From positions 9,967,898 through 10,031,897 of the forward strand of contig CM037864.1 of NCBI GenBank assembly GCA_021292105.1: 64,000 nt of DNA. Direction: 5' to 3'. Position 1 is the first letter of the stretch, and the number at the start of each line of letters is the position of its first letter. The notes beneath the pieces were generated by a model. That model was not told the DNA's origin, did no database searches, and saw only the letters and a list, made by a program, of their open reading frames with translations. A program made the translations under genes and the position numbers. Shown here piece by piece: positions 22,791-48,180 of the stretch. Source of the stretch: Anadara kagoshimensis. Taxonomy: Eukaryota > Mollusca > Bivalvia > Arcoida > Arcidae.

Positions 22791-23115
22791 TTAATGTTGC
22801 ATACAAGATAAAATAGTGAGAGGCATGTTTTTTCTTTTTTATTTTATTATTTAATTTTTTGAAAGCTTATTCTTGTTGAAATTTCTTTTTGAAAGCTTAT
22901 TGTTTTTGATACGAAAAGGAAAATCTCTTTTTTTCACGTTAAATGTAAAAATACAAAATGGCTAAAATACGAATAATGCCCTATTTACTTGGTATTGCAA
23001 AGCCCGTAAACTGGCACTGATTTTTTCGTTACAAAGAAATATTTATTTGGTCTAAACGAAATAACATATTTATAAATTCGTTTTTGCTTTGTGTATGTTT
23101 TTCAAAAAATCTATA

Positions 23116-23288
23116 TACAGCCAAACCTGTCTATAAAGACCACCAAATGGAACCAGTAAAAGTGGCCTTTATGGGCCTTTATAGAGGTTCTGAAATATGA
23201 ATAAAGAACAACTTGGATACAATTCTACTGGCCTTTATAAACAGGTGGTTCATATATAGAGATGACCATTAAGACAGGTTGGACTGTA
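23116..23288 (-). mobile_element. Pogo/Tc1-like MITE family P, copy 3
   Basis: Same family in reverse orientation: TACAGCCAAACCTGTCTATA at the left and GGTTGGACTGTA at the right. Confidence 0.78.
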
Positions 23289-24209
23289 CATGTAATAATG
23301 ATTCTCCCGAAATTCTAGAAAGTATGTCGGAATAGAACCAAAAATGTGTGTTTATATTATGAATTGCAATAAAACATCAAATGCAGGAAAGTACATCTCA
23401 CAAGATCTCTCTTCTAACCTTAGTCTCGTCGTACGTACTGTGTATGGATGTAAGATCCAAGGAAGAAAATGATACCTCAAGTAATGTAATAAACAATTAC
23501 AAAGTCATATGTGTTTATAAATATAACCAGAACGGTAAGTTAGTAATTAGTTACCATGGCAACCGATTATTAAACATCAGCCTAGACTCAAGGTTGTTGT
23601 AAAGTGTGGAAATAGAAAAAAGTTGGCTAGGTAAACATAATGTGATTACCAAACGGTGTAGTCATACCAAACATTTAATGATACTAGTATCAGGGGATTA
23701 CTTCAGAAAAGAAATAGAATTATGGAAATAACATACAGAAAAATGAAAATAACAGATACGGTTATTAAAAGTAATAAAAATACACGATTTCAAAGAAAGC
23801 ACCGAAAGTTCAGACATCCAGGCATATTATAACAAAGTGTCATGGCAACCTGTTGTATAGCATTTTAAATATTCTTGTTGCTTTTGATGTATAAAGTCGT
23901 CAATTCTAGTTCTGTGGACACCAATCAAGAATAATACAATCCAATAATATATAGCTGACACTTGACCTGTATGTTATATGCAATCAACATTTGTTTCCTC
24001 AAGTTGTCCATTTCACTTGATCCTATGCAACCACTGTCAACGTACTACAAATGCACTGCTTCTTGCAAGAAGCCATGCGGGGGACGTCTAGTCACTCGCT
24101 ATGGAATGGATTTAATTTTATTGAAAATTTCATATTGACCGACTTGATAAACATGTCCAAGCAACGACATTTTGTACGTCAACGTTAAACATTTTCAGAA
24201 GTAAGATTT

Positions 24210-27018: not shown

Positions 27019-27201
27019 GCTAGTCCAACCTGCCTTAAAGGTCATATCTATATAAGAGCCCCCTGCTTATAAAGGTCAGTAAAATTGTATCTCAATTGTC
27101 CTATTTCATATTATTTGAAGCTGTATGTAAAGGCCACCTGCCCATAAAGGCCACTTTTACTGGTTCCCCTTGGGTGACCTTTATAGGTAGGTTTGACTGT
27201 A
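27019..27201 (+). mobile_element. Pogo/Tc1-like MITE family P, copy 4
   Basis: Starts TAGTCCAACCTGCCTTAAAG (left tip altered) and ends GTAGGTTTGACTGTA. It sits about 640 bases outside the Foldback-like element. Confidence 0.75.
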
Positions 27202-27827: not shown

Positions 27828-27836
27828 GAAATTAAT
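27828..27836. repeat. Target site duplication, left (GAAATTAAT)
   Basis: Exact 9-base match to 48172-48180, immediately outside the first base of the terminal inverted repeat. Confidence 0.9.
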
Positions 27837-28063
27837 ACTGGTGTGAAGCTAGCCCGCAATTCTAGCCCGCAATTTTTTTAAATATCATCAAGCGGGCAAT
27901 TCGATTTTATTTAAATACGGTCAATCCTTACATCATTCTATTTATTAATATTTGATATTTAGGGCGACCTGGTATTGCACAAAACTTTTTATAAAGACCA
28001 CCTGTATATTAAGACCACAGGAACCGTGATTTTGAGTGTGATTACGAAATTACGCATAGGGCG
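27837..28063 (+). repeat. Foldback-like element, left outer tip
   Basis: About 230 bases matching 47943-48171 in reverse with roughly 13 mismatches and no gaps by eye (~94%). A 13-base direct repeat TAGCCCGCAATTC is at the very tip, possibly a transposase binding site. The inner edge GATTACGAAATTACGCATAG leads into the first satellite unit. Confidence 0.88.
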
Positions 28064-31000
28064 TAAAATGCGTTTCCCATCTAGGCCTTTTAACCACGGG
28101 TAGATCTATCCAATTGCAACATTTGGTGAAAATTTCAAGAACCCTAGAGGGGTAGAACGGGTCTTACGAGAGCTCAGAAGGACCATACCCCCCTTTTGAT
28201 ATGTGATTTCGTAAGGACCTGCTACGTTTGAAGTAGCGTACACAGAGAAAATGCGTTTCCCCATCTAGGCCTTTTAACCACGGGTAGATCTATCCAATTG
28301 CAACATTTGGTGAAAATTTCAAGAACCCTAGAGGGGTAGAACGGGTCTTACGAGAGCTCAGAAGGACCATACCCCCCTTTTGATATGTGATTTCGTAAGG
28401 ACCTGCTACGTTTGAAGTAGCGTACACAGAGAAAATGCGTTTCCCCATCTAGGCCTTTTAACCACGGGTAGATCTATCCAATTGCAACATTTGGTGAAAA
28501 TTTCAAGAACCCTAGAGGGGTAGAACGGGTCTTACGAGAGCTCAGAAGGACCATACCCCCCTTTTGATATGTGATTTCGTAAGGACCTGCTACGTTTGAA
28601 GTAGCGTACACAGAGAAAATGCGTTTCCCCATCTAGGCCTTTTAACCACGGGTAGATCTATCCAATTGCAACATTTGGTGAAAATTTCAAGAACCCTAGA
28701 GGGGTAGAACGGGTCTTACGAGAGCTCAGAAGGACCATACCCCCCTTTTGATATGTGATTTCGTAAGGACCTGCTACGTTTGAAGTAGCGTACACAGAGA
28801 AAATGCGTTTCCCCATCTAGGCCTTTTAACCACGGGTAGATCTATCCAATTGCAACATTTGGTGAAAATTTCAAGAACCCTAGAGGGGTAGAACGGGTCT
28901 TACGAGAGCTCAGAAGGACCATACCCCCCTTTTGATATGTGATTTCGTAAGGACCTGCTACGTTTGAAGTAGCGTACACAGAGAAAATGCGTTTCCCCAT
29001 CTAGGCCTTTTAACCACGGGTAGATCTATCCAATTGCAACATTTGGTGAAAATTTCAAGAACCCTAGAGGGGTAGAACGGGTCTTACGAGAGCTCAGAAG
29101 GACCATACCCCCCTTTTGATATGTGATTTCGTAAGGACCTGCTACGTTTGAAGTAGCGTACACAGAGAAAATGCGTTTCCCCATCTAGGCCTTTTAACCA
29201 CGGGTAGATCTATCCAATTGCAACATTTGGTGAAAATTTCAAGAACCCTAGAGGGGTAGAACGGGTCTTACGAGAGCTCAGAAGGACCATACCCCCCTTT
29301 TGATATGTGATTTCGTAAGGACCTGCTACGTTTGAAGTAGCGTACACAGAGAAAATGCGTTTCCCCATCTAGGCCTTTTAACCACGGGTAGATCTATCCA
29401 ATTGCAACATTTGGTGAAAATTTCAAGAACCCTAGAGGGGTAGAACGGGTCTTACGAGAGCTCAGAAGGACCATACCCCCCTTTTGATATGTGATTTCGT
29501 AAGGACCTGCTACGTTTGAAGTAGCGTACACAGAGAAAATGCGTTTCCCCATCTAGGCCTTTTAACCACGGGTAGATCTATCCAATTGCAACATTTGGTG
29601 AAAATTTCAAGAACCCTAGAGGGGTAGAACGGGTCTTACGAGAGCTCAGAAGGACCATACCCCCCTTTTGATATGTGATTTCGTAAGGACCTGCTACGTT
29701 TGAAGTAGCGTACACAGAGAAAATGCGTTTCCCCATCTAGGCCTTTTAACCACGGGTAGATCTATCCAATTGCAACATTTGGTGAAAATTTCAAGAACCC
29801 TAGAGGGGTAGAACGGGTCTTACGAGAGCTCAGAAGGACCATACCCCCCTTTTGATATGTGATTTCGTAAGGACCTGCTACGTTTGAAGTAGCGTACACA
29901 GAGAAAATGCGTTTCCCCATCTAGGCCTTTTAACCACGGGTAGATCTATCCAATTGCAACATTTGGTGAAAATTTCAAGAACCCTAGAGGGGTAGAACGG
30001 GTCTTACGAGAGCTCAGAAGGACCATACCCCCCTTTTGATATGTGATTTCGTAAGGACCTGCTACGTTTGAAGTAGCGTACACAGAGAAAATGCGTTTCC
30101 CCATCTAGGCCTTTTAACCACGGGTAGATCTATCCAATTGCAACATTTGGTGAAAATTTCAAGAACCCTAGAGGGGTAGAACGGGTCTTACGAGAGCTCA
30201 GAAGGACCATACCCCCCTTTTGATATGTGATTTCGTAAGGACCTGCTACGTTTGAAGTAGCGTACACAGAGAAAATGCGTTTCCCCATCTAGGCCTTTTA
30301 ACCACGGGTAGATCTATCCAATTGCAACATTTGGTGAAAATTTCAAGAACCCTAGAGGGGTAGAACGGGTCTTACGAGAGCTCAGAAGGACCATACCCCC
30401 CTTTTGATATGTGATTTCGTAAGGACCTGCTACGTTTGAAGTAGCGTACACAGAGAAAATGCGTTTCCCCATCTAGGCCTTTTAACCACGGGTAGATCTA
30501 TCCAATTGCAACATTTGGTGAAAATTTCAAGAACCCTAGAGGGGTAGAACGGGTCTTACGAGAGCTCAGAAGGACCATACCCCCCTTTTGATATGTGATT
30601 TCGTAAGGACCTGCTACGTTTGAAGTAGCGTACACAGAGAAAATGCGTTTCCCCATCTAGGCCTTTTAACCACGGGTAGATCTATCCAATTGCAACATTT
30701 GGTGAAAATTTCAAGAACCCTAGAGGGGTAGAACGGGTCTTACGAGAGCTCAGAAGGACCATACCCCCCTTTTGATATGTGATTTCGTAAGGACCTGCTA
30801 CGTTTGAAGTAGCGTACACAGAGAAAATGCGTTTCCCCATCTAGGCCTTTTAACCACGGGTAGATCTATCCAATTGCAACATTTGGTGAAAATTTCAAGA
30901 ACCCTAGAGGGGTAGAACGGGTCTTACGAGAGCTCAGAAGGACCATACCCCCTTTTGATATGTGATTTCGTAAGGACCTGCTACGTTTGAAGTAGCGTAC

Positions 31001-34000
31001 ACAGAGAAAATGCGTTTCCCCATCTAGGCCTTTTAACCACGGGTAGATCTATCCAATTGCAACATTTGGTGAAAATTTCAAGAACCCTAGAGGGGTAGAA
31101 CGGGTCTTACGAGAGCTCAGAAGGACCATACCCCCCTTTTGATATGTGATTTCGTAAGGACCTGCTACGTTTGAAGTAGCGTACACAGAGAAAATGCGTT
31201 TCCCCATCTAGGCCTTTTAACCACGGGTAGATCTATCCAATTGCAACATTTGGTGAAAATTTCAAGAACCCTAGAGGGGTAGAACGGGTCTTACGAGAGC
31301 TCAGAAGGACCATACCCCCCTTTTGATATGTGATTTCGTAAGGACCTGCTACGTTTGAAGTAGCGTACACAGAGAAAATGCGTTTCCCCATCTAGGCCTT
31401 TTAACCACGGGTAGATCTATCCAATTGCAACATTTGGTGAAAATTTCAAGAACCCTAGAGGGGTAGAACGGGTCTTACGAGAGCTCAGAAGGACCATACC
31501 CCCCTTTTGATATGTGATTTCGTAAGGACCTGCTACGTTTGAAGTAGCGTACACAGAGAAAATGCGTTTCCCCATCTAGGCCTTTTAACCACGGGTAGAT
31601 CTATCCAATTGCAACATTTGGTGAAAATTTCAAGAACCCTAGAGGGGTAGAACGGGTCTTACGAGAGCTCAGAAGGACCATACCCCCCTTTTGATATGTG
31701 ATTTCGTAAGGACCTGCTACGTTTGAAGTAGCGTACACAGAGAAAATGCGTTTCCCCATCTAGGCCTTTTAACCACGGGTAGATCTATCCAATTGCAACA
31801 TTTGGTGAAAATTTCAAGAACCCTAGAGGGGTAGAACGGGTCTTACGAGAGCTCAGAAGGACCATACCCCCCTTTTGATATGTGATTTCGTAAGGACCTG
31901 CTACGTTTGAAGTAGCGTACACAGAGAAAATGCGTTTCCCCATCTAGGCCTTTTAACCACGGGTAGATCTATCCAATTGCAACATTTGGTGAAAATTTCA
32001 AGAACCCTAGAGGGGTAGAACGGGTCTTACGAGAGCTCAGAAGGACCATACCCCCCTTTTGATATGTGATTTCGTAAGGACCTGCTACGTTTGAAGTAGC
32101 GTACACAGAGAAAATGCGTTTCCCCATCTAGGCCTTTTAACCACGGGTAGATCTATCCAATTGCAACATTTGGTGAAAATTTCAAGAACCCTAGAGGGGT
32201 AGAACGGGTCTTACGAGAGCTCAGAAGGACCATACCCCCCTTTTGATATGTGATTTCGTAAGGACCTGCTACGTTTGAAGTAGCGTACACAGAGAAAATG
32301 CGTTTCCCCATCTAGGCCTTTTAACCACGGGTAGATCTATCCAATTGCAACATTTGGTGAAAATTTCAAGAACCCTAGAGGGGTAGAACGGGTCTTACGA
32401 GAGCTCAGAAGGACCATACCCCCCTTTTGATATGTGATTTCGTAAGGACCTGCTACGTTTGAAGTAGCGTACACAGAGAAAATGCGTTTCCCCATCTAGG
32501 CCTTTTAACCACGGGTAGATCTATCCAATTGCAACATTTGGTGAAAATTTCAAGAACCCTAGAGGGGTAGAACGGGTCTTACGAGAGCTCAGAAGGACCA
32601 TACCCCCCTTTTGATATGTGATTTCGTAAGGACCTGCTACGTTTGAAGTAGCGTACACAGAGAAAATGCGTTTCCCCATCTAGGCCTTTTAACCACGGGT
32701 AGATCTATCCAATTGCAACATTTGGTGAAAATTTCAAGAACCCTAGAGGGGTAGAACGGGTCTTACGAGAGCTCAGAAGGACCATACCCCCCTTTTGATA
32801 TGTGATTTCGTAAGGACCTGCTACGTTTGAAGTAGCGTACACAGAGAAAATGCGTTTCCCCATCTAGGCCTTTTAACCACGGGTAGATCTATCCAATTGC
32901 AACATTTGGTGAAAATTTCAAGAACCCTAGAGGGGTAGAACGGGTCTTACGAGAGCTCAGAAGGACCATACCCCCCTTTTGATATGTGATTTCGTAAGGA
33001 CCTGCTACGTTTGAAGTAGCGTACACAGAGAAAATGCGTTTCCCCATCTAGGCCTTTTAACCACGGGTAGATCTATCCAATTGCAACATTTGGTGAAAAT
33101 TTCAAGAACCCTAGAGGGGTAGAACGGGTCTTACGAGAGCTCAGAAGGACCATACCCCCCTTTTGATATGTGATTTCGTAAGGACCTGCTACGTTTGAAG
33201 TAGCGTACACAGAGAAAATGCGTTTCCCCATCTAGGCCTTTTAACCACGGGTAGATCTATCCAATTGCAACATTTGGTGAAAATTTCAAGAACCCTAGAG
33301 GGGTAGAACGGGTCTTACGAGAGCTCAGAAGGACCATACCCCCCTTTTGATATGTGATTTCGTAAGGACCTGCTACGTTTGAAGTAGCGTACACAGAGAA
33401 AATGCGTTTCCCCATCTAGGCCTTTTAACCACGGGTAGATCTATCCAATTGCAACATTTGGTGAAAATTTCAAGAACCCTAGAGGGGTAGAACGGGTCTT
33501 ACGAGAGCTCAGAAGGACCATACCCCCCTTTTGATATGTGATTTCGTAAGGACCTGCTACGTTTGAAGTAGCGTACACAGAGAAAATGCGTTTCCCCATC
33601 TAGGCCTTTTAACCACGGGTAGATCTATCCAATTGCAACATTTGGTGAAAATTTCAAGAACCCTAGAGGGGTAGAACGGGTCTTACGAGAGCTCAGAAGG
33701 ACCATACCCCCCTTTTGATATGTGATTTCGTAAGGACCTGCTACGTTTGAAGTAGCGTACACAGAGAAAATGCGTTTCCCCATCTAGGCCTTTTAACCAC
33801 GGGTAGATCTATCCAATTGCAACATTTGGTGAAAATTTCAAGAACCCTAGAGGGGTAGAACGGGTCTTACGAGAGCTCAGAAGGACCATACCCCCCTTTT
33901 GATATGTGATTTCGTAAGGACCTGCTACGTTTGAAGTAGCGTACACAGAGAAAATGCGTTTCCCCATCTAGGCCTTTTAACCACGGGTAGATCTATCCAA

Positions 34001-35951
34001 TTGCAACATTTGGTGAAAATTTCAAGAACCCTAGAGGGGTAGAACGGGTCTTACGAGAGCTCAGAAGGACCATACCCCCCTTTTGATATGTGATTTCGTA
34101 AGGACCTGCTACGTTTGAAGTAGCGTACACAGAGAAAATGCGTTTCCCCATCTAGGCCTTTTAACCACGGGTAGATCTATCCAATTGCAACATTTGGTGA
34201 AAATTTCAAGAACCCTAGAGGGGTAGAACGGGTCTTACGAGAGCTCAGAAGGACCATACCCCCCTTTTGATATGTGATTTCGTAAGGACCTGCTACGTTT
34301 GAAGTAGCGTACACAGAGAAAATGCGTTTCCCCATCTAGGCCTTTTAACCACGGGTAGATCTATCCAATTGCAACATTTGGTGAAAATTTCAAGAACCCT
34401 AGAGGGGTAGAACGGGTCTTACGAGAGCTCAGAAGGACCATACCCCCCTTTTGATATGTGATTTCGTAAGGACCTGCTACGTTTGAAGTAGCGTACACAG
34501 AGAAAATGCGTTTCCCCATCTAGGCCTTTTAACCACGGGTAGATCTATCCAATTGCAACATTTGGTGAAAATTTCAAGAACCCTAGAGGGGTAGAACGGG
34601 TCTTACGAGAGCTCAGAAGGACCATACCCCCCTTTTGATATGTGATTTCGTAAGGACCTGCTACGTTTGAAGTAGCGTACACAGAGAAAATGCGTTTCCC
34701 CATCTAGGCCTTTTAACCACGGGTAGATCTATCCAATTGCAACATTTGGTGAAAATTTCAAGAACCCTAGAGGGGTAGAACGGGTCTTACGAGAGCTCAG
34801 AAGGACCATACCCCCCTTTTGATATGTGATTTCGTAAGGACCTGCTACGTTTGAAGTAGCGTACACAGAGAAAATGCGTTTCCCCATCTAGGCCTTTTAA
34901 CCACGGGTAGATCTATCCAATTGCAACATTTGGTGAAAATTTCAAGAACCCTAGAGGGGTAGAACGGGTCTTACGAGAGCTCAGAAGGACCATACCCCCC
35001 TTTTGATATGTGATTTCGTAAGGACCTGCTACGTTTGAAGTAGCGTACACAGAGAAAATGCGTTTCCCCATCTAGGCCTTTTAACCACGGGTAGATCTAT
35101 CCAATTGCAACATTTGGTGAAAATTTCAAGAACCCTAGAGGGGTAGAACGGGTCTTACGAGAGCTCAGAAGGACCATACCCCCCTTTTGATATGTGATTT
35201 CGTAAGGACCTGCTACGTTTGAAGTAGCGTACACAGAGAAAATGCGTTTCCCCATCTAGGCCTTTTAACCACGGGTAGATCTATCCAATTGCAACATTTG
35301 GTGAAAATTTCAAGAACCCTAGAGGGGTAGAACGGGTCTTACGAGAGCTCAGAAGGACCATACCCCCCTTTTGATATGTGATTTCGTAAGGACCTGCTAC
35401 GTTTGAAGTAGCGTACACAGAGAAAATGCGTTTCCCCATCTAGGCCTTTTAACCACGGGTAGATCTATCCAATTGCAACATTTGGTGAAAATTTCAAGAA
35501 CCCTAGAGGGGTAGAACGGGTCTTACGAGAGCTCAGAAGGACCATACCCCCCTTTTGATATGTGATTTCGTAAGGACCTGCTACGTTTGAAGTAGCGTAC
35601 ACAGAGAAAATGCGTTTCCCCATCTAGGCCTTTTAACCACGGGTAGATCTATCCAATTGCAACATTTGGTGAAAATTTCAAGAACCCTAGAGGGGTAGAA
35701 CGGGTCTTACGAGAGCTCAGAAGGACCATACCCCCCTTTTGATATGTGATTTCGTAAGGACCTGCTACGTTTGAAGTAGCGTACACAGAGAAAATGCGTT
35801 TCCCCATCTAGGCCTTTTAACCACGGGTAGATCTATCCAATTGCAACATTTGGTGAAAATTTCAAGAACCCTAGAGGGGTAGAACGGGTCTTACGAGAGC
35901 TCAGAAGGACCATACCCCCCTTTTGATATGTGATTTCGTAAGGACCTGCTA
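28064..35951 (+). repeat. 184-base satellite array, left (~43 copies)
   Basis: Head-to-tail units, each containing GCGTTTCCCCATCTAGGCCT, CACGGGTAGATCTATCCAAT, ACCCTAGAGGGGTAGAACGG and a short hairpin GCTACgtttgaaGTAGC. Spacing is exactly 184 bases in the units I measured. The copies look identical by eye except the first (one C fewer) and one near 30950 (five rather than six C). 184 is not a multiple of three and no frame stays open, so the array is non-coding. Confidence 0.95.
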
Positions 35952-37453
35952 TATTTTGGAACCCTACATATAAATAAGGTCCAATTTTTGGTGTTTAAAA
36001 AGCTCGTTTAAAATACTACAAAATATGGGGAAAAATAACAACCCTTAACAGATCGTTTTCGAGATAAATGACGTTCCGTCAAAGGTACAAAATAGCACTA
36101 TTAACATGTCGCATGAGACCATCATGAGCTGGCCGTAGATTCGTACACACACAACACAATTTACCGCTAGTTATATGTTCAAGTACGTTTCGCTGCATCT
36201 TCCTTTCTAATGTTTTTGATTTAATCATCATTTTCCGGTTGTTAGGGCAACAAGTCGTTGCTATGGCAATTTTCTTGATTATTTTTGAAGTTTAGACCGT
36301 GGACGAAAATACGAAACTTGTATGATACCTGAAGTGGCGTACATGGAGTAAAATAAGCCCTCGGTCTTTAGGCTTGTTAGGTAATCATATTACTACGCGA
36401 ATATCATATCACCGTATTCCAAACGTAATTGCCTTTCTAAAAAAATATCATGGCTCTGTTTCCATACATTTGTAATTTTATTTTTTTTTATTAAAAAATC
36501 TTTGAACGAAGCACATGGCCGCATATTGTGTTACGCACTATTTGGGTCCCTTGCACGGAATTACCTAAAACTGGAGCGCACGGAAATATAATCATATTAA
36601 AAACCCAACGTTGGTTTGCCAATATTCTTAGCCTACACTTTTTGAGGACTCTCTATGGAGTCTTTGTATGGAGTAAATTTCAAAGCTATTCATGAGAAAT
36701 AAGCAACTTATGTAAAGAATGTATTAGTGAAATATTCCCTTAAAATAGTATTCCAAGGAATACTAATTCACTGAATTTTCTTGTTACGTTTCTTTTTCAT
36801 CTTTTTTCACAAAAAATCATATGACCTTTGGTCATTCAGATGATGCGATATTTGACGTTTTAAGGATCTGAAACTTGTAATTTGTTCAGAGTGAAGGGTC
36901 AAGATCATGACTTAATTCATTTATTCCGTGTTTTACATATTTGATATACATTTGTCTATAACTTTTTTATGTTTAGAAGCAATGATTTTCAACACGAAGA
37001 CAAAGTCGAACTCGACAATAAAAACTGTATTGTTGATAAACTTTTAAAACTTTATGTGAGCTTAGGCCATTTTTAGTTTTCATGTTTTCATAGCATGGCA
37101 TTCAAAACGGAGTAAATGTTAAAGCTCTGAATTAGTTTTGAAATTGTGAGCTTTTTCCTCTATATTTGTTACATTTCAATTTTGAGTTTTTACTTACACT
37201 GCTCTTTTACCATTGATCAAGTTTAAAAGCCAAGGTACTGACCTCATTTGAAAATTAATCCTGAAAATGCTAAATCTGGACTATATTTGTTGCAATGGTC
37301 TTCATAATCATAATAGAGTTTTATATCTTTATGAGTTATAATTATGAATATATTTGAAGCCGATTTTAATTTAGATTTTAATTTTTGTAATTTTAAATAG
37401 ACATTTTTGGTCATGTGTAATTCCATGACTAAGATATTGATTTCGTTTGTATA

Positions 37454-37455
37454 GT

Positions 37456-37491
<36 letters not shown>

Positions 37492-37509
37492 TTATTTATT
37501 ATTTATTTT
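37454..37509 (+). repeat. (ATTT)n microsatellite
   Basis: About ten ATTT units, then imperfect ATT/ATTT. Confidence 0.88.
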
Positions 37510-39596
37510 GGAAAAGCCGAGACTTCGAAGCTTTTTGGTAAATTCAAAAGAAGTAAGCTAATGGAATTTAGTCGAGTTTGCAAATAAGCATATGATAGAC
37601 GCCAGGGTGGATGACGCATTGCAAAAAATGAGGTCAAAGGTCACTGAATGGAAAAAAAATTAATTATATCCTGGACATAATGTGCCCTTATCTTGCAAAA
37701 AACATATAACTTTTATTTGCAATAATTTTGAGATAAATAGAACATATTGTATAGTGATGTTTTTTAAAACTGCATGACGTTAAATAAACAAAATTTTAAG
37801 ATAAATATTGCCAAAATCTTGTCCAAATACATGTAGAATAATTAATTTTTGAAACATAAATTTGTGAAGATGTAAGAAAAGATCATATCCACCAAGTTTA
37901 CTATGCCAGTCTGCAAAAAATATATGTATATAGAAATTAATCAAAGTACTGAGAGTACTCTAGGTAGAGATTTAGCTTTTAGCTATATATAAAATATTAA
38001 TATATGTTATGTTCTGAATGTTACAATAAAACAGAAGTAAAATAAATATTTTCATCAGATAATAATATTACTAAGGACATATGTTTAATCGATATGAATG
38101 TGATGTTTTCAATGGCGTTTAAGTAATATTTAGTGCTAAGATGCTGTTGATTTTGTGACAATTGGATTACTCTGATTATCAAAATGGACATAGCGAACAC
38201 TTATACACTTTTTAACGTAGTAATATAAAAGAGAAAAATTTGCAATTGAAAACATTTTTAATATCCTATGCAAATAAGAATGTAAAACAATAAATGATTC
38301 AACAGACAAACAAGACCAGATAAATACATATCGGCACCACTGAGTATAAAATCCCGAGATTTGGACGGGAATCACCAGTAGTAGTTTAAAGGCAAAATCC
38401 GCTTTTTTATTAAAAAGTATATAGATGATAGGACAAAAACGAGGAATAAATAAATAAGGAACTATTATACCTTCTTTTGATGTTAGTTTCCTTAATGGCT
38501 GCCATTCATGTTTAAATAATTTTTGAAATGTGTAGATCATCACTAGGGTTTGGTACTGAAGATCATAAAAAGGTCAAAGGTCAAATGAGTGAATTATATC
38601 ATGAAATATACATATAAACTTTCTAATACTAGAAAATTCGGCATATTTATGAGTAATTACCTCAAAATAATATAAAACTAAGTTTTAGAAGTATATATAT
38701 GTATCAAACGAAATCGACCAGAATTTGCACTTGAGGTAGACCAAAGTATAGTGGATGAGTTAAATATTTTATTTTCAGTGTTGATGGCATATATTGTTTA
38801 ACAATCTTGATGATATTAAAATATATATTAGTAATATTTGTTTTTATAATGCTTTGGGATTTTGGTTTAGACATGGATTGGTATGTTTGTTATGATAACT
38901 TCATATTTATGATATGATGCAATGCTGAAAGCTATTATTCTTTTTCACTTTTTCTCGATTCTTGGAGGTTTTGACAGTTCTAAAGCAACTTTTTCCTTAC
39001 TACTTTCCAAAAGAAAATTTATGTTTGAAATTGAAATTGTTGGAATTGTTCATTTTCTTACAGACAACAATATCATTATGATCATGTACTTGTGTTTTGA
39101 CAAATATATTAACATTGATAATGATATGTAATGATTCCTTAAACTGTCTCAGTTTTTCAGCACTAGAAATCAGCCAAAATAGGCGCTTAGTAAGACCACT
39201 CGTGCATTTTGTATGTACTAATCTGTAAAAATTGGTGTAATGATGTTTTGGTGTTTATCTCAAAATGTGGTTGATAACTTTTCGTGTCAATAACTTTAAG
39301 GCAGGAAGATATAACTTTTCGCCTAAAAAAGAAAACCAAAACATTTTCTACAACATTAGGGCCCTATATCTTTTTAAATGTAGACTATAAAATTGCATCA
39401 ACTGTGTTTGCTAAACGAATTAAAACAGTCCTATGGTTTCGGTGATTCAATAAATAAATTGTTTTAAAGCATTAAATTGAGTAGATTACTTCTCTGTCTG
39501 TTCCGGTTTAAAAGCTATTTTCGATAAAAACAAGTTATTTAGATGGGGTAAACGGGGTTGTGGTGATAAACTTAGAACTGACAGAAAAATAGAATG

Positions 39597-39664
39597 GAAT
39601 TGAAAAGGAAATTTCAAACTTTTGGGTATAAATTGAAAAGGAAATTTCAAACTTTTGGGTATAA
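39597..39664 (+). repeat. 34-base tandem duplication in LINE remnant
   Basis: ATTGAAAAGGAAATTTCAAA then CTTTTGGGTATAAA occurs twice in direct succession. Confidence 0.88.
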
Positions 39665-40710
39665 AATATAATTTGGGAGATATAGATTTTTACCAGAAAA
39701 TTATACAGATTAACTTGAGTCCTTTAAGAAGCTTCTGTTCTGAATGATTTGTCATTCTTAAGTGCCAGATCTTCCAAACGACATAATAAATGAAATAAAT
39801 AGATTGATGTTCTCTTTCATATGGAACATCAAATTGAATAAAATAAAAACGAGGTGTATTGGTTTTTTGAATTATGATGAAGGTAGTTTAAAGGTATCCC
39901 ATATCAAGTTCTTTTGTCAAAAGATTTCATGGGTGCAGAAAATCCGCTCTGCCATTTTACCATGGAAATGTCTGCTTCTGGATGATCTCGAAGAGTTCGA
40001 GGGTGCTAATGTTTTTAAAGATGGGTTTGCTTCAATACACCGTTGATTAATAAATTCTGGTGATCGGTGATCACTGCATGGGCCAATTTACCAAATAATT
40101 ACATCACAAACACAAATGACGTAATGTCACAATATCTCTGGTAAAATCCTAACATTAAAACAAATAAAACTTTTGGAAAATGTGGGCAAAAGAAAATATT
40201 AATTTTTAAGGTTTTAACAAATGATGAAGGAAATATTATGTCTTATAATGAGTTTACAGCTAAGTTTGATTTTAATATTAATAATCTAAATTATTACACC
40301 TTGATTGATACAATTCCGGAAATCTGGAAAAGTGCAATCCAGCTACAAGAAAATCCGCTTAGAGAAGTCAGAAATAGTTTTATAACTAAATTGAAATAAA
40401 GGAAAATAGTTTCCAAAATGTTTTACATATATATCTAAAAGAAATTAGAAATTTTGCACAAAAATAAGAGATTGGATGTGTTGATTAATTATGTTTTCTT
40501 GTCACCGATGAAACAAAAATCAAGATTTCCAGTATAAAATTAAACACAATATTAATTTTATAAGCAGCCGAACAATGAAATGCAAGCTTCTTGAAACTGA
40601 ACTATGCAGTTTTTGTTGGAAAGTTAAAGAAACTGAACAACATTTATTTTTAGAATGTCAGTATGTAACAAATATATTAAACATATTTTTCGATCAAGAT
40701 AAAAATCAAA
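39600..40710 (+). pseudogene. LINE ORF2 3' end, decayed
   Basis: Fragments read as the C-terminal part of a LINE reverse transcriptase protein. First F-K-L-L-G-I-K-Y-N then D-F-Y-Q-K-I (39640-39710); then EINRLMFSFIWN-K-x-x-K-I-K-T-R (39790-39850) followed by a G-x-L-K-V-S-x-I-K-F segment; then a zinc-knuckle-like C-S-F-C...E-T-E-Q-H-L-F-L-E-C (about 40600-40660). Stops and shifts separate the pieces, and the 5' part and catalytic domain are absent. The clade cannot be assigned. It lies inside the Foldback-like element, either as an older passenger or a later insertion. Confidence 0.75.
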
Positions 40711-43700
40711 TCCCACGTGATTATAGAAAATGAAGTAAATAATGTTTATTTGGAAAGAAGCACAAAGTAATCATTTTTGGCATTTTTCATTTATGCATTT
40801 TAATAATTAAATAGTATATCCATATATGTAGAATGTCCAATACATTTCCCCAATACAATATTGCAATAGAAAAGATGTGTCTCTACAAACAGATCGAAAT
40901 GTATTCCATATATCAGTATTCCACGACAAGGGCACACAAAATTAGAATAAACTGGGAACATGTTGAGGTAGGCCCATACATTGAAAACATATTTTGAAAT
41001 TTTAATATGTTGTACATGGGCATTAACCACTCAACATGCCAAAATTTCAAGGTAGGTATTCAGAATACTTAAGAAAATTCTGAAGCGCCATCTGGTGGAC
41101 ATTTTCACGTCATAAATGGTCAAAAATAATAAGCTTTAATACTTTTTGCCATGCTTAGTATCCAAAAGAGTCTTGCATTTAAATTTAACATTATGTCATA
41201 AAGATAATTTGGACTAATTGATTTTACTTCCGGACATGCGGTATTTTTCTACTGCGCCGCCTATCAAGAAAGAACATTAAAATTTCGGAAAACTAAAAGT
41301 AACACCCTTTCGTTATTTTGATGTTTTATAAAAAATACGATCGCTGATTTTAACATGTGTTGCGCATGAATATATAAGTTTAGAAAGAATAGAGGGTAGT
41401 CAAGCTACTTTTTTCATAAAATTGCATTAAAATCAAAACCAAGATTAGAAACCTTATTCCTTACATAAGAACTCACCATTAATGTCCTAGGATACAATTT
41501 TAACTCAATGTTTTCGTTTGGTGTTAACAAATAAGCAAAAACAGTGATAATGAGCTATTTGGCTTTGCAAAACAAAACGAATTTGAAATACCATATTATC
41601 TGTACCCCTAGCAACCCTTACCAATACCAACGAATTAAATTGGAAAGAGGAGTCGTATACATTGATGAAGGGTTCTTAATTCTAGGCCGCTGAAATGAAA
41701 AGCAAATACAAGAGCATTGTCAAAATTTGACACTGAGAAAAATTATTATGAAGTATGTTTATTGAACAACCGTGCGTTTGCGTCGTACTATTTTTATTTG
41801 AATAACCCTTCTCCCAAACAGTCACATAAAGCAGCGATATAAAACACAGTACCTCAAATTTTAAACGACGTTCTCAAATCTTTCAAATATTTAGATTTGC
41901 GCCCTCAAAAGTGTAGATCTTCCTTATTTCCGTTAAATTATACATTTTGTTCTTTAAAAATAATACACAACATTGGTGTTGTGAATTATAAGCTTTTGTG
42001 AATGCAGATAATTATTCTAAATGATACGCATTAGAGCGTCCCGCCATAATTCGGTAGGTGCCGAACACCATTTATTCGTGACGTCATAGGTAGAAAGACG
42101 TAAAATCGGAGTTTGTCCTTACGCACAAAACGACGACGTCACCATGGTATGGATATACCTTAAAAGATTGTGGGATTTATAAGTTGTTATAATAATAGAT
42201 GTGTGTATAAATTGTTTTTGTTAATGCCTTTTAATTCTGTTCTGTAACATATACAGAGAAATAAAAATATTTAGAGCACTGTATAAGGGTTTTTACACTC
42301 GCTAGTGTGTTTTTATTTTGTCAATCTCTGAATACGGTGTTTTTATACTCACTGAATAAGGTGTTTGATTTTGATACTCGCTAAATAATGTTTTTTAGTT
42401 TTGATACTAACTGAACAAGGTGTCTTATTATAAAACGGAATACAAAAGTAAGTCATCCGGTTTCATTGAAATAACGATATTCTTTATACAATCTGAAATC
42501 ATTTTAATTATCTTTATTAATTAAACACTAGATATTTAACATTTTTATTACATTTATTCTGATGATCACATTACTAGTAAGTGAAACTCAAGTCAAGCAT
42601 TAGCTAGAACAAAATGTCGCCTTAGTAATTTAGCTATAAAAATATGTAGTGTAATTAATGTGCGATTACTTTTCGAGTTTGTTCAGTGGAATATGTCATT
42701 CAATTATTTATCTTACAAAAACTCGTCTGTAGTTTACGTTACATAATAAACATCATCAGAAACATCAATAGTGATGTACCGTAATTCGTCAGTCAGTTAT
42801 TTAGTTATTAAAGGTGTACCCAGTAATTCAAACAAGTGCGCGTCTAGTTGTTTGCAGAACAATTACACTAGGATTAAGATTTATTTATTTGAAATGTTTT
42901 GCAACTTTTACCCAATTGAGATTTAATGTTAAATCTGTTCTTTCTCTGAATTATAATTAGACTCTAATGGTTGTGAAAAAGTGTCATTGAGAAATTAGGA
43001 TATACGTTAGACAAAAGCATTGTATTCAAGACATCAGTATTCAGTTACATGTACACGTTAACGCTTAATATTGACAGTTCTTTTTAAAATATATGTGATT
43101 TTGGCACTTTCAAAGCGGGTGTTATATCAACAAAATGTTAAACTACAACCACAATTTCCTTATTTCCGGTACTCATATTGCTTGTTTTATATAAGTATTC
43201 GAATGAAATGATCGTTCACTTATTTGAACCTTTGACACCAAAATGACTTAACATCGTAACATCTGGATTGGAATCCACTCTAAAACCACTATATGTATCC
43301 CAAGCAAAAATTTCAGAATGAATTGTCAGTTATTGACCATTGACAAAAATATCATCAAATGTAAATTTAAGCATAAAAATAGAGTTGTCAGCCAGACTAT
43401 TACATATTATTGTTTTGCAATGACTGTTTTAAAGATACAGTGCCAAAATGAGAAAATGCATTCGTCACTCGGTTTAGTTTTGAAATATTAATACATTGAG
43501 AATTTAACATTACATCACATACTTTTAATTATGTGTTTCCTCATACGGTGTGGCTGAATGATTTAGGGGTAAAAAACAATTATATCTTCTCAATGAATTT
43601 ATTTGAAATTTGTCATACATCATTAAATAACATAGTTATATATATACATGTATATAGTAACCCACTATAGGTATAGTTCATATGGTGTAATATTGTTGTG

Positions 43701-44387
43701 AAAATAATCCTGGAGTCGTTTGTGTACATCCAACACCCAGATTTAACCTATCATTGACGTCATTGTCCTAACATCTTGACAGAATAGACACTTATCAATG
43801 AAATTTAAAACATCAGATTTTGCATATAAATTACGGTTTTAGAATTTACTCTCATATTAATTATTTACCAAATAAAAATTTAACTTACAAAATTAATTCC
43901 ATAAAACCACATTTAAAATAAACGGACAACATTTCTACACTTAAAATTGTTTAAACGTACTTGGAAACGTTAAATTCATATCATTTAAACAGACGATTAT
44001 GAGTATATGTATCTATCGCTTAAATAAACATGTTTTATATTAGTTGTTTTATTATAATTATGGTTACAGAATAAGTAAATGGTGATGTTGTATTTGCCGT
44101 TTAGAACTCATAGTCAACCTAATACATAGAGCACTTTCAGTACTTTGATTAATTCTGTAAACTTTTTATATGTGCCATAATGCGTTTGAAAAGGTACACC
44201 TGGTGCATAATTATGCAGTTTCTTCTTACATCGACACTATAATTTTTATTTTATGGTTAAAAAAAATAAACATTGTATTTAGTTTTTCAACTTGTTACAT
44301 TTTGTAATATATGTTCGAAATATGATTTCTAACATTCCATGTAATTAAAAACAAAACTAGTTATCATAGTAATTCCGAGCTCTTGTT

Positions 44388-47300
44388 AGTCCCGTTCTTC
44401 GCCTCTAGGGTTCTTAAAAACCAAATGTTGCAATTGGATAGATCTACCCGTGGTTAAAAGGCCTAGATGGGGAAACGCATTTTCTCTGTGTACGCTACTG
44501 TCCTTACGAAATCACATATCAAAAGGGGGGTATGGTCCTTCTGAGCTCTCGTAAGACCCGTTCTACCCCTCTAGGGTTCTTGAAATTTTCACCAAATGTT
44601 GCAATTGGATAGATCTACCCGTGGTTAAAAGGCCTAGATGGGGAAACGCATTTTCTCTGTGTACGCCACTTCAAACGTAGCAGGTTCTTACGAAATCACA
44701 TATTAAAAGGGGGTATGGTCCTTCTGAGCTCTCGTAAGACCCGTTCTACCCCTCTAGGGTTCTTGAAATTTTCACCAAATGTTGCAATTGGATAGATCTA
44801 CCCGTGGTTAAAAGGCCTAGATGGGGAAACGCATTTTCTCTGTGTACGCTACTTCAAACGTAGCAGGTCCTTACGAAATCACATATCAAAAGGGGGGTAT
44901 GGTCCTTCTGAGCTCTCGTAAGACCCGTTCTACCCCTCTAGGGTTCTTGAAATTTTCACCAAATGTTGCAATTGGATAGATCTACCCGTGGTTAAAAGGC
45001 CTAGATGGGGAAACGCATTTTCTCTGTGTACGCTACTTCAAACGTAGCAGGTCCTTACGAAATCACATATCAAAAGGGGGGTATGGTCCTTCTGAGCTCT
45101 CGTAAGACCCGTTCTACCCCTCTAGGGTTCTTGAAATTTTCACCAAATGTTGCAATTGGATAGATCTACCCGTGGTTAAAAGGCCTAGATGGGGAAACGC
45201 ATTTTCTCTGTGTACGCACTTCAAACGTAGCAGGTCCTTACGAAATCACATATCAAAAGGGGGGTATGGTCCTTCTGAGCTCTCGTAAGACCCGTTCTAC
45301 CCCTCTAGGGTTCTTGAAATTTTCACCAAATGTTGCAATTGGATAGATCTACCCGTGGTTAAAAGGCCTAGATGGGGAAACGCATTTTCTCTGTGTACGC
45401 AACTTCAAACGTAGCAGGTCCTTACGAAATCACATATCAAAAGGGGGGTATGGTCCTTCTGAGCTCTCGTAAGACCCGTTCTACCCCTCTAGGGTTCTTG
45501 AAATTTTCACCAAATGTTGCAATTGGATAGATCTACCCGTGGTTAAAAGGCCTAGATGGGGAAACGCATTTTCTCTGTGTACGCTACTGTCCTTACGAAA
45601 TCACATATCAAAAGGGGGGTATGGTCCTTCTGAGCTCTCGTAAGACCCGTTCTACCCCTCTAGGGTTCTTGAAATTTTCACCAAATGTTGCAATTGGATA
45701 GATCTACCCGTGGTTAAAAGGCCTAGATGGGGAAACGCATTTTCTCTGTGTACGCTACTTCAAACGTAGCAGGTCCTTACGAAATCACATATCAAAAGGG
45801 GGGTATGGTCCTTCTGAGCTCTCGTAAGACCCGTTCTACCCCTCTAGGGTTCTTGAAATTTTCACCAAATGTTGCAATTGGATAGATCTACCCGTGGTTA
45901 AAAGGCCTAGATGGGGAAACGCATTTTCTCTGTGTACGCTACTTCAAACGTAGCAGGTCCTTACGAAATCACATATCAAAAGGGGGGTATGGTCCTTCTG
46001 AGCTCTCGTAAGACCCGTTCTACCCCTCTAGGGTTCTTGAAATTTTCACCAAATGTTGCAATTGGATAGATCTACCCGTGGTTAAAAGGCCTAGATGGGG
46101 AAACGCATTTTCTCTGTGTACGCTACTTCAAACGTAGCAGGTCCTTACGAAATCACATATCAAAAGGGGGGTATGGTCCTTCTGAGCTCTCGTAAGACCC
46201 GTTCTACCCCTCTAGGGTTCTTGAAATTTTCACCAAATGTTGCAATTGGATAGATCTACCCGTGGTTAAAAGGCCTAGATGGGGAAACGCATTTTCTCTG
46301 TGTACGCTACTTCAAACGTAGCAGGTCCTTACGAAATCACATAAAAAGGGGGTATGGTCCTTCTGAGCTCTCGTAAGACCCGTTCTACCCCTCTAGGGTT
46401 CTTGAAATTTTCACCAAATGTTGCAATTGGATAGATCTACCCGTGGTTAAAAGGCCTAGATGGGGAAACGCATTTTCTCTGTGTACGCTACTTCAAACGT
46501 AGCAGGTCCTTACGAAATCACATATCAAAAGGGGGTATGGTCCTTCTGAGCTCTCGTAAGACCCGTTCTACCCCTCTAGGGTTCTTGAAATTTTCACCAA
46601 ATGTTGCAATTGGATAGATCTACCCGTGGTTAAAAGGCCTAGATGGGGAAACGCATTTTCTCTGTGTACGCTACTTCAAACGTAGCAGGTCCTTACGAAA
46701 TCACATATCAAAAGGGGGGTATGGTCCTTCTGAGCTCTCGTAAGACCCGTTCTACCCCTCTAGGGTTCTTGAAATTTTCACCAAATGTTGCAATTGGATA
46801 GATCTACCCGTGGTTAAAAGGCCTAGATGGGGAAACGCATTTTCTCTGTGTACGCTACTTCAAACGTAGCAGGTCCTTACGAAATCACATATCAAAAGGG
46901 GGGTATGGTCCTTCTGAGCTCTCGTAAGACCCGTTCTACCCCTCTAGGGTTCTTGAAATTTTCACCAAATGTTGCAATTGGATAGATCTACCCGTGGTTA
47001 AAAGGCCTAGATGGGGAAACGCATTTTCTCTGTGTACGCTACTTCAAACGTAGCAGGTCCTTACGAAATCACATATCAAAAGGGGGTATGGTCCTTCTGA
47101 GCTCTCGTAAGACCCGTTCTACCCCTCTAGGGTTCTTGAAATTTTCACCAAATGTTGCAATTGGATAGATCTACCCGTGGTTAAAAGGCCTAGATGGGGA
47201 AACGCATTTTCTCTGTGTACGCTACTTCAAACGTAGCAGGTCCTTACGAAATCACATATCAAAAGGGGGGTATGGTCCTTCTGAGCTCTCGTAAGACCCG

Positions 47301-47942
47301 TTCTACCCCTCTAGGGTTCTTGAAATTTTCACCAAATGTTGCAATTGGATAGATCTACCCGTGGTTAAAAGGCCTAGATGGGGAAACGCATTTTCTCTGT
47401 GTACGCTACTTCAAACGTAGCAGGTCCTTACGAAATCACATATCAAAAGGGGGGTATGGTCCTTCTGAGCTCTCGTAAGACCCGTTCTACCCCTCTAGGG
47501 TTCTTGAAATTTTCACCAAATGTTGCAATTGGATAGATCTACCCGTGGTTAAAAGGCCTAGATGGGGAAACGCATTTTCTCTGTGTACGCTACTTCAAAC
47601 GTAGCAGGTCCTTACGAAATCACATATCAAAAGGGGGGTATGGTCCTTCTGAGCTCTCGTAAGACCCGTTCTACCCCTCTAGGGTTCTTGAAATTTTCAC
47701 CAAATGTTGCAATTGGATAGATCTACCCGTGGTTAAAAGGCCTAGATGGGGAAACGCATTTTCTCTGTGTACCACTTCAAACGTAGCAGGTCTTACGAAA
47801 TCACATATCAAAAGGGGGGTATGGTCCTTCTGAGCTCTCGTAAGACCCGTTCTACCCCTCTAGGGTTCTTGAAATTTTCACCAAATGTTGCAATTGGATA
47901 GATCTACCCGTGGTTAAAAGCCCTAGATGGGGAAACGCATTT
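44388..47942 (-). repeat. 184-base satellite array, right (~19 copies, inverted)
   Basis: The same unit as the left array in opposite orientation. It is less uniform: several copies have shortened G runs (five rather than six), one reads CATAAAAAGGG, two lack 14-15 bases at the hairpin arm (near 44500 and 45590), and the innermost copy is clearly diverged (CCGTTCTTCGCCTC). The outer edge joins the tip at GGGGAAACGCATTTTACGCC. Confidence 0.95.
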
Positions 47943-48171
47943 TACGCCCTATGCGTAATTTCGTAATCACACTTATAATCACGGTTCCGGTGGTCTTAAT
48001 ATACAGGTGGTCTTTATAAAATGTTGTGTGCAATACCAGGTCGCCCTAAATATCAAATATTAATAAATCGAATGATATTAGGAATAACCGTATTTAAATA
48101 AAATTGAATTGCCCGCTTGATGATATATAAAAAAACTGCGGGCTAGAATTGCGGGCTAGCTTCACACCAGT
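47943..48171 (-). repeat. Foldback-like element, right outer tip
   Basis: Reverse complement of 27837-28063, ending ...GGGCTAGCTTCACACCAGT at 48171. Confidence 0.88.
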
Positions 48172-48180
48172 GAAATTAAT
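48172..48180. repeat. Target site duplication, right (GAAATTAAT)
   Basis: Exact match to 27828-27836. Confidence 0.9.

What the first reader, a model, noticed from the sequence alone, without database searches (positions are those of the whole stretch)
27828..48180. A 20-kb Foldback-like transposon with satellite-built inverted ends and a 9-base target duplication
The sequence directly shows GAAATTAAT on both sides, matching tips, and two inverted arrays of one 184-base unit. Known Foldback/NOF and related MULE-group elements have 9-base duplications and tandem-repeat TIRs, usually with much shorter units. A 184-base unit in arrays of ~7.9 and ~3.6 kb would be an extreme example, and a route by which a transposon can seed or spread a satellite.
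Basis: partly seen in the sequence, partly recalled or inferred. Interest (0 to 1): 0.78.

Follow-up and report, generated by a model that had tools for sequence, protein, structure and literature searches.

The report
Giant satellite-armed foldback transposon family
This is one copy of a family of very large jumping DNA elements whose two mirror-image ends are long runs of a single 184-letter repeat, an example of satellite-like DNA being carried around a genome by a mobile element.

Summary
Window 27828-48180 is a 20.3-kb insertion between two copies of GAAATTAAT, with inverted tips, arrays of one 184-bp unit (about 43 left, 20 right) and an 8.4-kb core without recognised coding sequence. 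The proposed refutation fails: the tip occurs at 397 places in the same genome, control 0. Of 38 tip pairs whose ends I read, window included, 29 have an exact 9-bp target duplication (mispaired control 1 of 870). One copy sits in an 81-bp tandem array whose neighbouring units are empty sites. All 19 further elements sampled inside a tip carry the same unit. Arms reach 62 units, probably about 81. It is a non-autonomous, Foldback-like family; a MULE-type driver is inferred, but none with these tips was found (12 of 76 MULE matches examined). One young copy, core 0.18% from the window's, has one pristine arm and one old arm with a 12-unit higher-order repeat, so arms seem exchangeable. Closest precedent: Tetris of Drosophila virilis. 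New variant of a known kind.

The parts
27828..27836 (.). left target-site duplication GAAATTAAT
27837..28064 (+). left tip domain (unique ~228 bp, begins ACTGGTGTGAAGC; contains CTAGCCCGCAATT twice)
   Evidence: 76 tips of the family, both window tips among them, aligned
28065..35951 (+). left array, about 43 units of 184 bp, nearly all identical
35952..44372 (+). core shared with other copies (0.18-4.2% substitution against six copies); no Pfam family at E<=1 in six frames
44373..47943 (-). right array, inverted, about 20 units; the innermost ~127 bp degenerate
47944..48171 (-). right tip domain, inverted copy of the left tip
48172..48180 (.). right target-site duplication GAAATTAAT

Best explanation
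A non-autonomous, Foldback-like cut-and-paste DNA transposon. Shown: a family with near-invariant tips, arms made of a ~226-bp tip domain plus an array of one 184-bp unit, an ~8-kb core without recognised coding sequence, and insertion with a 9-bp duplication; copies with an exact duplication run from 1.4 kb to 33.4 kb (the longest holds a nested insertion). Inferred: a MULE-type transposase supplied in trans acts on the tips and moves the whole unit, arrays included. Inferred from unit patterns: arms are rebuilt by recombination and local amplification. A single monomer can be amplified into a pristine array; older arrays gather point changes and block duplications; arms can be exchanged between copies through the shared units.
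For: Tip 26-mer at <=3 mismatches: 154+243=397 places, backwards-pattern control 0. Exact 9-bp duplications: 22 of 29 further tip pairs (30 rows, one an alternative pairing, which fails; mispaired control 1 of 870 at <=1 mismatch); 6 of 8 elements read whole, window included (flanks printed, compared by eye); 1 of 1 for C2:3620428. Together 29 of 38. Empty sites: taking the C12 element and one duplication out restores an 81-bp period; of its 4 complete neighbouring units 3 carry the 9 bases exactly and 1 with one substitution. The same unit lies just inside the tip in 19 of 19 elements sampled (20 fragments) and in both arms of 8 of 8 read whole. 35 of 35 exact core 39-mers on C1-C9 lie within 30 kb of a listed tip, 30 of them inside tip pairs. 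Array dynamics: in C7:44112502 the left arm has 0 of 34 substitution-free units, the right arm 35 of 36 analysed, yet its core is 15 mismatches in 8,260 aligned bases from the window's. C18a and C18b share one arm in order but not the other. MULE transposase domains exist in this genome (76 matches).
Against: 9 of 38 pairs lack the duplication. No transposase with these tips was found: 12 of 76 MULE matches (11 distinct places) were read around and none has the tip; the nearest listed tip to any of 40 MULE matches on C1-C10 is 97.7 kb away, but only 100 of 397 tips were listed. So driver and MULE membership rest on duplication length. Import of an arm after insertion by gene conversion is not separated from exchange before insertion. 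Many single-base deletions in arrays look like consensus errors, so unit counts may be off. Clear higher-order blocks appear in 3 of 7 informative arms tested.
Confidence: 0.82

Rival explanations
1. Two unrelated satellite blocks in opposite orientation, joined by assembly or by chance, with a fortuitous 9-mer.
For: Left and right arrays differ in length and homogeneity; arrays this uniform are hard to assemble; some copies look rearranged (C18b).
Against: Same tips, unit, core and differing 9-bp duplications at tens of sites; empty sites in an 81-bp array.
Confidence: 0.01
2. Foldback-like element driven by a P-superfamily (Galileo-like) or other non-MULE transposase.
For: Foldback structure has arisen in several superfamilies (PMC3169594 passages; PMC4079207 Discussion); no driver was found here.
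Against: Duplications are 9 bp in each positive case, as for MULEs with 8-11 bp (PMC6446971 passages); 7-8 bp for the P superfamily is recalled.
Confidence: 0.12
3. Segmental duplication of one locus rather than transposition.
For: C18a and C18b share 3242 bp of inverted flank at 99.88%.
Against: Flanks and 9-bp duplications differ from site to site.
Confidence: 0.02
4. Arrays grow after insertion, so the transposed unit was short and the arms are secondary.
For: A 1.4-kb copy with 4 and 2 units and an exact duplication exists (C14); arm lengths vary widely between copies.
Against: C7:44112502 is young by its core yet has a 36-unit arm far more diverged than that age allows, so this arm predates the insertion or was imported whole.
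Confidence: 0.25

Closest known systems
Tetris (Drosophila virilis; PMC4079207: abstract, outline, Results part 1, Discussion part 1 read)
   Same: Apparently non-autonomous, Foldback-like; flanking tip domain plus tandem ~220-bp units in both inverted ends; 8-10 bp duplications; middle without apparent coding capacity; no driver found; linked to satellite DNA.
   Different: Tetris ends are up to 1,735 bp and three structurally complete copies were reported; its long arrays (up to 66 units) were described as satellite-like arrays amplified within Tetris and proposed to disrupt its transposition. Here arms of up to 62, probably about 81, units lie inside elements with exact duplications. No sequence comparison was made.
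Tm1 (root-knot nematodes; PMC3169594, passages)
   Same: 8-10 bp, mostly 9-bp, duplications without consensus (45 of 53 elements); variable tandem repeats in the inverted ends; ends of one element unequal.
   Different: ~14-bp units; elements of about 1.1 and 2.6 kb in the passages seen; some encode a Phantom-like transposase.
Rehavkus and the MULE superfamily (PMC6446971, passages)
   Same: Rehavkus: 9-bp duplications and a minisatellite before the 3' inverted repeat.
   Different: Inverted repeats of tens to some hundreds of bp in that study; transposase-encoding; no recognised coding sequence here.
Cg_HINE Helentrons of the Pacific oyster (PMC7492417, abstract and outline)
   Same: Non-autonomous elements that carry and disperse satellite-like arrays.
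   Different: Arrays are central repeats; here two inverted terminal arrays and 9-bp duplications.
Drosophila FB/NOF and sea-urchin TU elements (recalled)
   Same: Long inverted ends of tandem repeats, 8-9 bp duplications (recalled).
   Different: Much shorter units (recalled).

Membership tests
Foldback-like element (structural class) | long inverted ends containing tandem repeats | tested here: met
Foldback-like element (structural class) | repeat number varies between copies and between the two ends of one copy | tested here: met
   left/right units in 8 elements: 43/20 (window), 62/29, 29/56, 22/12, 14/21, 17/20, 7/8, 4/2
Mutator/MULE superfamily | 8-11 bp target duplication, mostly 9 | tested here: met
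   exactly 9 bp in 29 of 38 tip pairs
Mutator/MULE superfamily | MULE-type transposase encoded by an element with the same tips | tested here: inconclusive
   no Pfam family in the window core; 76 MULE matches in the genome, 12 of them (11 places) read around, none with the tip
Tetris | sequence homology of tip or unit | not tested
   no Drosophila sequence was compared
P superfamily / Galileo | 7-8 bp duplication (recalled) | tested here: not met
   9 bp in each positive case
Helitron/Helentron | no inverted terminal arms and no target duplication of this kind (recalled) | tested here: not met
Satellite DNA proper | long arrays standing free of a mobile element | tested here: inconclusive
   the six places covered by the 100 rows listed in each all have a family tip; the other matches (of 5,089 and 5,421) were not listed

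The most novel reading that the evidence does not exclude
The arms are exchangeable, self-renewing satellite modules. One master monomer is repeatedly amplified into pristine multi-kb arms, arms are swapped between copies through the shared units, and whole elements of 10-28 kb or more with such arms transpose, so that a satellite is maintained, homogenised and dispersed entirely inside a transposon.
Probability: 0.45. Interest if true: 0.75.

Novelty: new variant of a known kind. Interest (0 to 1): 0.6.

Why it matters
Whether transposons give birth to satellites, or satellites ride on transposons, is an old question with few intact examples. Here 29 elements with exact 9-bp duplications were read at their ends, and the arms that were counted run from 2 to about 81 units, so array birth, homogenisation, block duplication and decay can be compared copy by copy in one genome. 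It also bears on two published expectations: that large arrays may disrupt a Foldback element's transposition (proposed for Tetris, PMC4079207), and that DNA transposition drops off above about 6 kb of cargo (PMC6431247, passage).

Tried and rejected
Assembly artefact or chance 9-mer: rejected. Coding core: six-frame Pfam scan of the window core gave nothing at E<=1. MULE driver: a 14-base tip at <=2 mismatches was sought in 12 fetched loci (L115-L126; L118 and L126 are the same place, L121 holds two matches, so 12 of 76 matches in 11 places); none. L115-L118 are 3.3-kb loci and L119-L126 5.0-6.5 kb, so tips further out would be missed. Unit derived from the tip: best match 21 bp at E 0.23; not supported. 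Fold of the unit as DNA: z -2.3, 4 of 200 shuffles as good; not used. Constraint on the unit: between C18a and window the arm consensus differs at 1 site where 7.4 would be expected from the core, but C2 goes the other way (10 consensus differences in its left arm and 4 in its right from the window's, with a core 0.83% away), so I claim no selection; cores and arms have different histories. Sister insertions sharing array order: two C7 copies of 23,556 and 23,563 bp did not share variant order in any arm, judged by eye. Higher-order repeats by lag (200 permutations): C7b_L lag 12, 0 reach it; C7a_L lag 17, 0; C18a_R lag 10, 2; not C18a_L (49), C18b_R (29), C12_L (21), C2_R (19); the two window arms were uninformative. 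A variant 31-mer of C7b_L occurs only in that arm, so the donor of that arm was not found; a like search for C18a_L did not complete. L085, a lone tip fetched, had no partner and entered no count of duplications.

Papers: PMC4079207 (abstract, outline, Results part 1, Discussion part 1); passages only of PMC6446971, PMC3169594, PMC6431247, PMC12628747, PMC11136912, PMC10294476; abstract and outline of PMC7492417; all others only as search listings. I saw no paper in the listings that by title or abstract start describes Foldback arms of this size; that is not proof of absence.

Full report
What is there. Window 27828-48180 holds, in order: GAAATTAAT; a 228-bp tip domain beginning ACTGGTGTGAAGC; about 43 units of 184 bp; an 8.4-kb core; about 20 inverted units; the inverted tip domain; GAAATTAAT. 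Of the 42 complete left units, 40 are identical. The right arm is more variable, with a 13-bp deletion variant and single-base deletions. Neither the core nor the rest of the window has an open frame of 150 codons, and the six frames of the core match no Pfam family at E<=1.

Is it a mobile family? The window's own genome is held (G000, 1,115,223,567 bases, 36 contigs, unnamed; from size and chromosome-like contigs I suspect a bivalve mollusc, untested). The 26-base tip at up to 3 mismatches occurs 154 times forward and 243 times reverse; the control, the pattern read backwards, gave 0. Only 100 exact places (C1-C10) were listed. From these I took 29 pairs of facing tips not already read in full, 5.6-28.3 kb apart, and fetched their ends. 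Of 30 rows (29 pairs and one alternative pairing that uses an extra tip) 22 show an exact 9-bp duplication; mispaired flanks came within one mismatch in 1 of 870. Among 8 elements read whole, window included, 6 have it (flanks compared by eye; C18b and C1 fail). The C2:3620428-3648073 element has it too (CATCGATCA). In all, 29 of 38. The 22 duplications show no evident target consensus. Lone tips on the list were left out, so 29 of 38 describes pairs only.

Empty sites. The C12 copy lies inside an 81-bp tandem array. Taking out the element and one CATCTCGGC restores the 81-bp period. Of the 4 complete neighbouring units shown, 3 carry the same 9 bases exactly and 1 with one substitution, none interrupted.

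The unit belongs to the element. All 20 fragments (19 elements) fetched just inside tips are arrays of this unit, as are both arms of all 8 elements read whole, down to a 1.4-kb copy with 4 and 2 units. A 24-mer of the unit at 2 mismatches occurs 5,089 times and a 26-mer at 3 mismatches 5,421 times, controls 0, roughly 1 Mb or 0.09% of the genome. The listed rows (100 each) fall in six places, each with a family tip; free arrays elsewhere are not excluded. The core 39-mer gave 228 places at 3 mismatches, control 0. Of these 66 are exact, and all 35 exact ones on C1-C9 lie within 30 kb of a listed tip, 30 inside pairs. A version of that 39-mer with three changes occurs 108 times exactly; of 59 such places on C1-C9 only 2 lie within 30 kb of a listed tip, so that part of the core is probably a stretch of another dispersed repeat.

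Size. Arms of elements read whole run from 2 to 62 units. The longest element with an exact duplication that was read whole is C18a, 33.4 kb, which holds a nested insertion of about 9.9 kb that may have come later. In C2:3620428 exact unit matches run at about 184-bp spacing or multiples of it from 3620736 to 3635559, about 81 units or 15 kb in one arm, in an element with an exact duplication; that array itself was not fetched.

How arms evolve. Position 27 of the unit is G in the first unit of 13 of 16 arms, and in some whole arms; position 176 is mostly G in C18a, C18b and C1 and mostly A in window and C19, in both arms of each. In C12, C18a, C18b, C1, C2, C7a_L and C7b_L units differ from their arm consensus by about 2-5 substitutions on average (7.0 for the two units of C14); in window, C19, C7a_R and C7b_R by 0-0.5. 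The sharpest case is C7b, C7:44112502-44136064. Its core differs from the window's by 15 mismatches in 8,260 aligned bases, the smallest distance found; the core tree leaves the join of the two unresolved. It has an exact duplication. In its right arm 35 of 36 units analysed have no substitution and show the same monomer as the window's left arm; the arm is about 45 units long by coordinates. In its left arm 0 of 34 are free of substitutions, with 4.79 per unit and a 12-unit block repeated in order (0 of 200 permutations reach the lag score). A variant 31-mer of that arm is found nowhere else. If mutation rates are alike, the left arm is older than the split of this copy from the window copy: it was already attached before insertion, or was imported whole later. 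In C7a (C7:42306899), oriented by its core like the window, it is the left arm that is older and the right that is nearly uniform, so neither end is always the young one. The second case is C18a and C18b. They share the core with its nested insertion at 99.67%, one arm with its variants in the same order, several units differing mostly by single-base deletions, and 3242 bp of flank, inverted, at 99.88%. Their other arms have different variant sets, and C18b lacks a duplication and has an unrelated flank there. A crossover inside the arrays, or a misjoin there, would give this; I cannot tell which.

Against my reading. 9 of 38 pairs have no duplication. Clear higher-order repeats were found in 3 of 7 informative arms; C18a_L, which by eye shows recurring variant blocks, failed (49 of 200 permutations). 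The arms of C2 differ in consensus from the window's although its core is only 0.83% away, so cores and arms do not share one genealogy; this fits exchange but forbids dating elements by their arms. Frequent deletions at homopolymers look like consensus errors. Arm exchange rests on two cases.

Driver. The genome holds 76 matches to the MULE transposase domain. Twelve of them, in 11 places, were read around; none has the tip. The nearest listed tip to any of the 40 MULE matches on C1-C10 is 97.7 kb away, with 100 of 397 tips listed. The MULE assignment rests on the 9-bp duplication and on the published 8-11 bp for MULEs (PMC6446971, passages). One of the loci read, L123, has ~120-bp tandem repeats inside its inverted repeats, so MULE-domain loci with tandem units in their inverted repeats do occur in this genome.

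Compared with the known. Tetris is the nearest published case I saw: ~220-bp units, ends up to 1,735 bp, 8-10 bp duplications, no driver, a link to satellites (PMC4079207). Tm1 shows the same plan with ~14-bp units (PMC3169594, passages). Relative to these the new features are arm length, element size, the number of insertions with exact duplications, and arms of unlike age in one element. I therefore call it a new variant of a known kind.

Noticed in passing
L009-L012 (C18:20958600-20992500) and L013-L016: The core of C18a/C18b carries a ~9.9-kb nested insertion with 446-bp inverted ends and, in C18b, a 1155-aa open frame that looks by eye like a non-LTR retrotransposon ORF2; the ends overlap the uninterrupted core by about 7 bp, as a 7-bp duplication would.
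   Followed up: partly
L012+L106 versus L107+L013: 3242 bp beside C18a recur inverted beside C18b at 99.88%, about 475 kb away: an inverted duplication, a polymorphic inversion or an unpurged haplotype.
   Followed up: partly
L123 (C9:22603000-22608000): A MULE-domain locus whose inverted repeats contain ~117-121-bp tandem units: possibly a coding example of the same architecture.
   Followed up: partly
G000 C15:32561701, C10:13221460, C18:9373990, C7:6124489, C9:27369325 and others: A multi-copy MULE family with long open frames and near-identical scores; two copies are 99.5% identical over 1,974 bp with short inverted ends TACATTACCGCGACATTTT.
   Followed up: partly
G000 C1:8314071-8436552: Five same-strand copies of a sister version of the core 39-mer at roughly 30-kb spacing, as if a large unit were tandemly repeated.
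   Followed up: no
G000 C6:22579043-22599918: An extra tip 6.9 kb outside an element that has an exact duplication; likely a nested or broken copy.
   Followed up: no
window 18252-18585: Six copies of a 55-bp tandem repeat, 97% alike.
   Followed up: no
window 8675-8867, 15172-15368, 23115-23289, 27022-27201: Four copies of a ~180-bp dispersed repeat, 77-87% alike.
   Followed up: no
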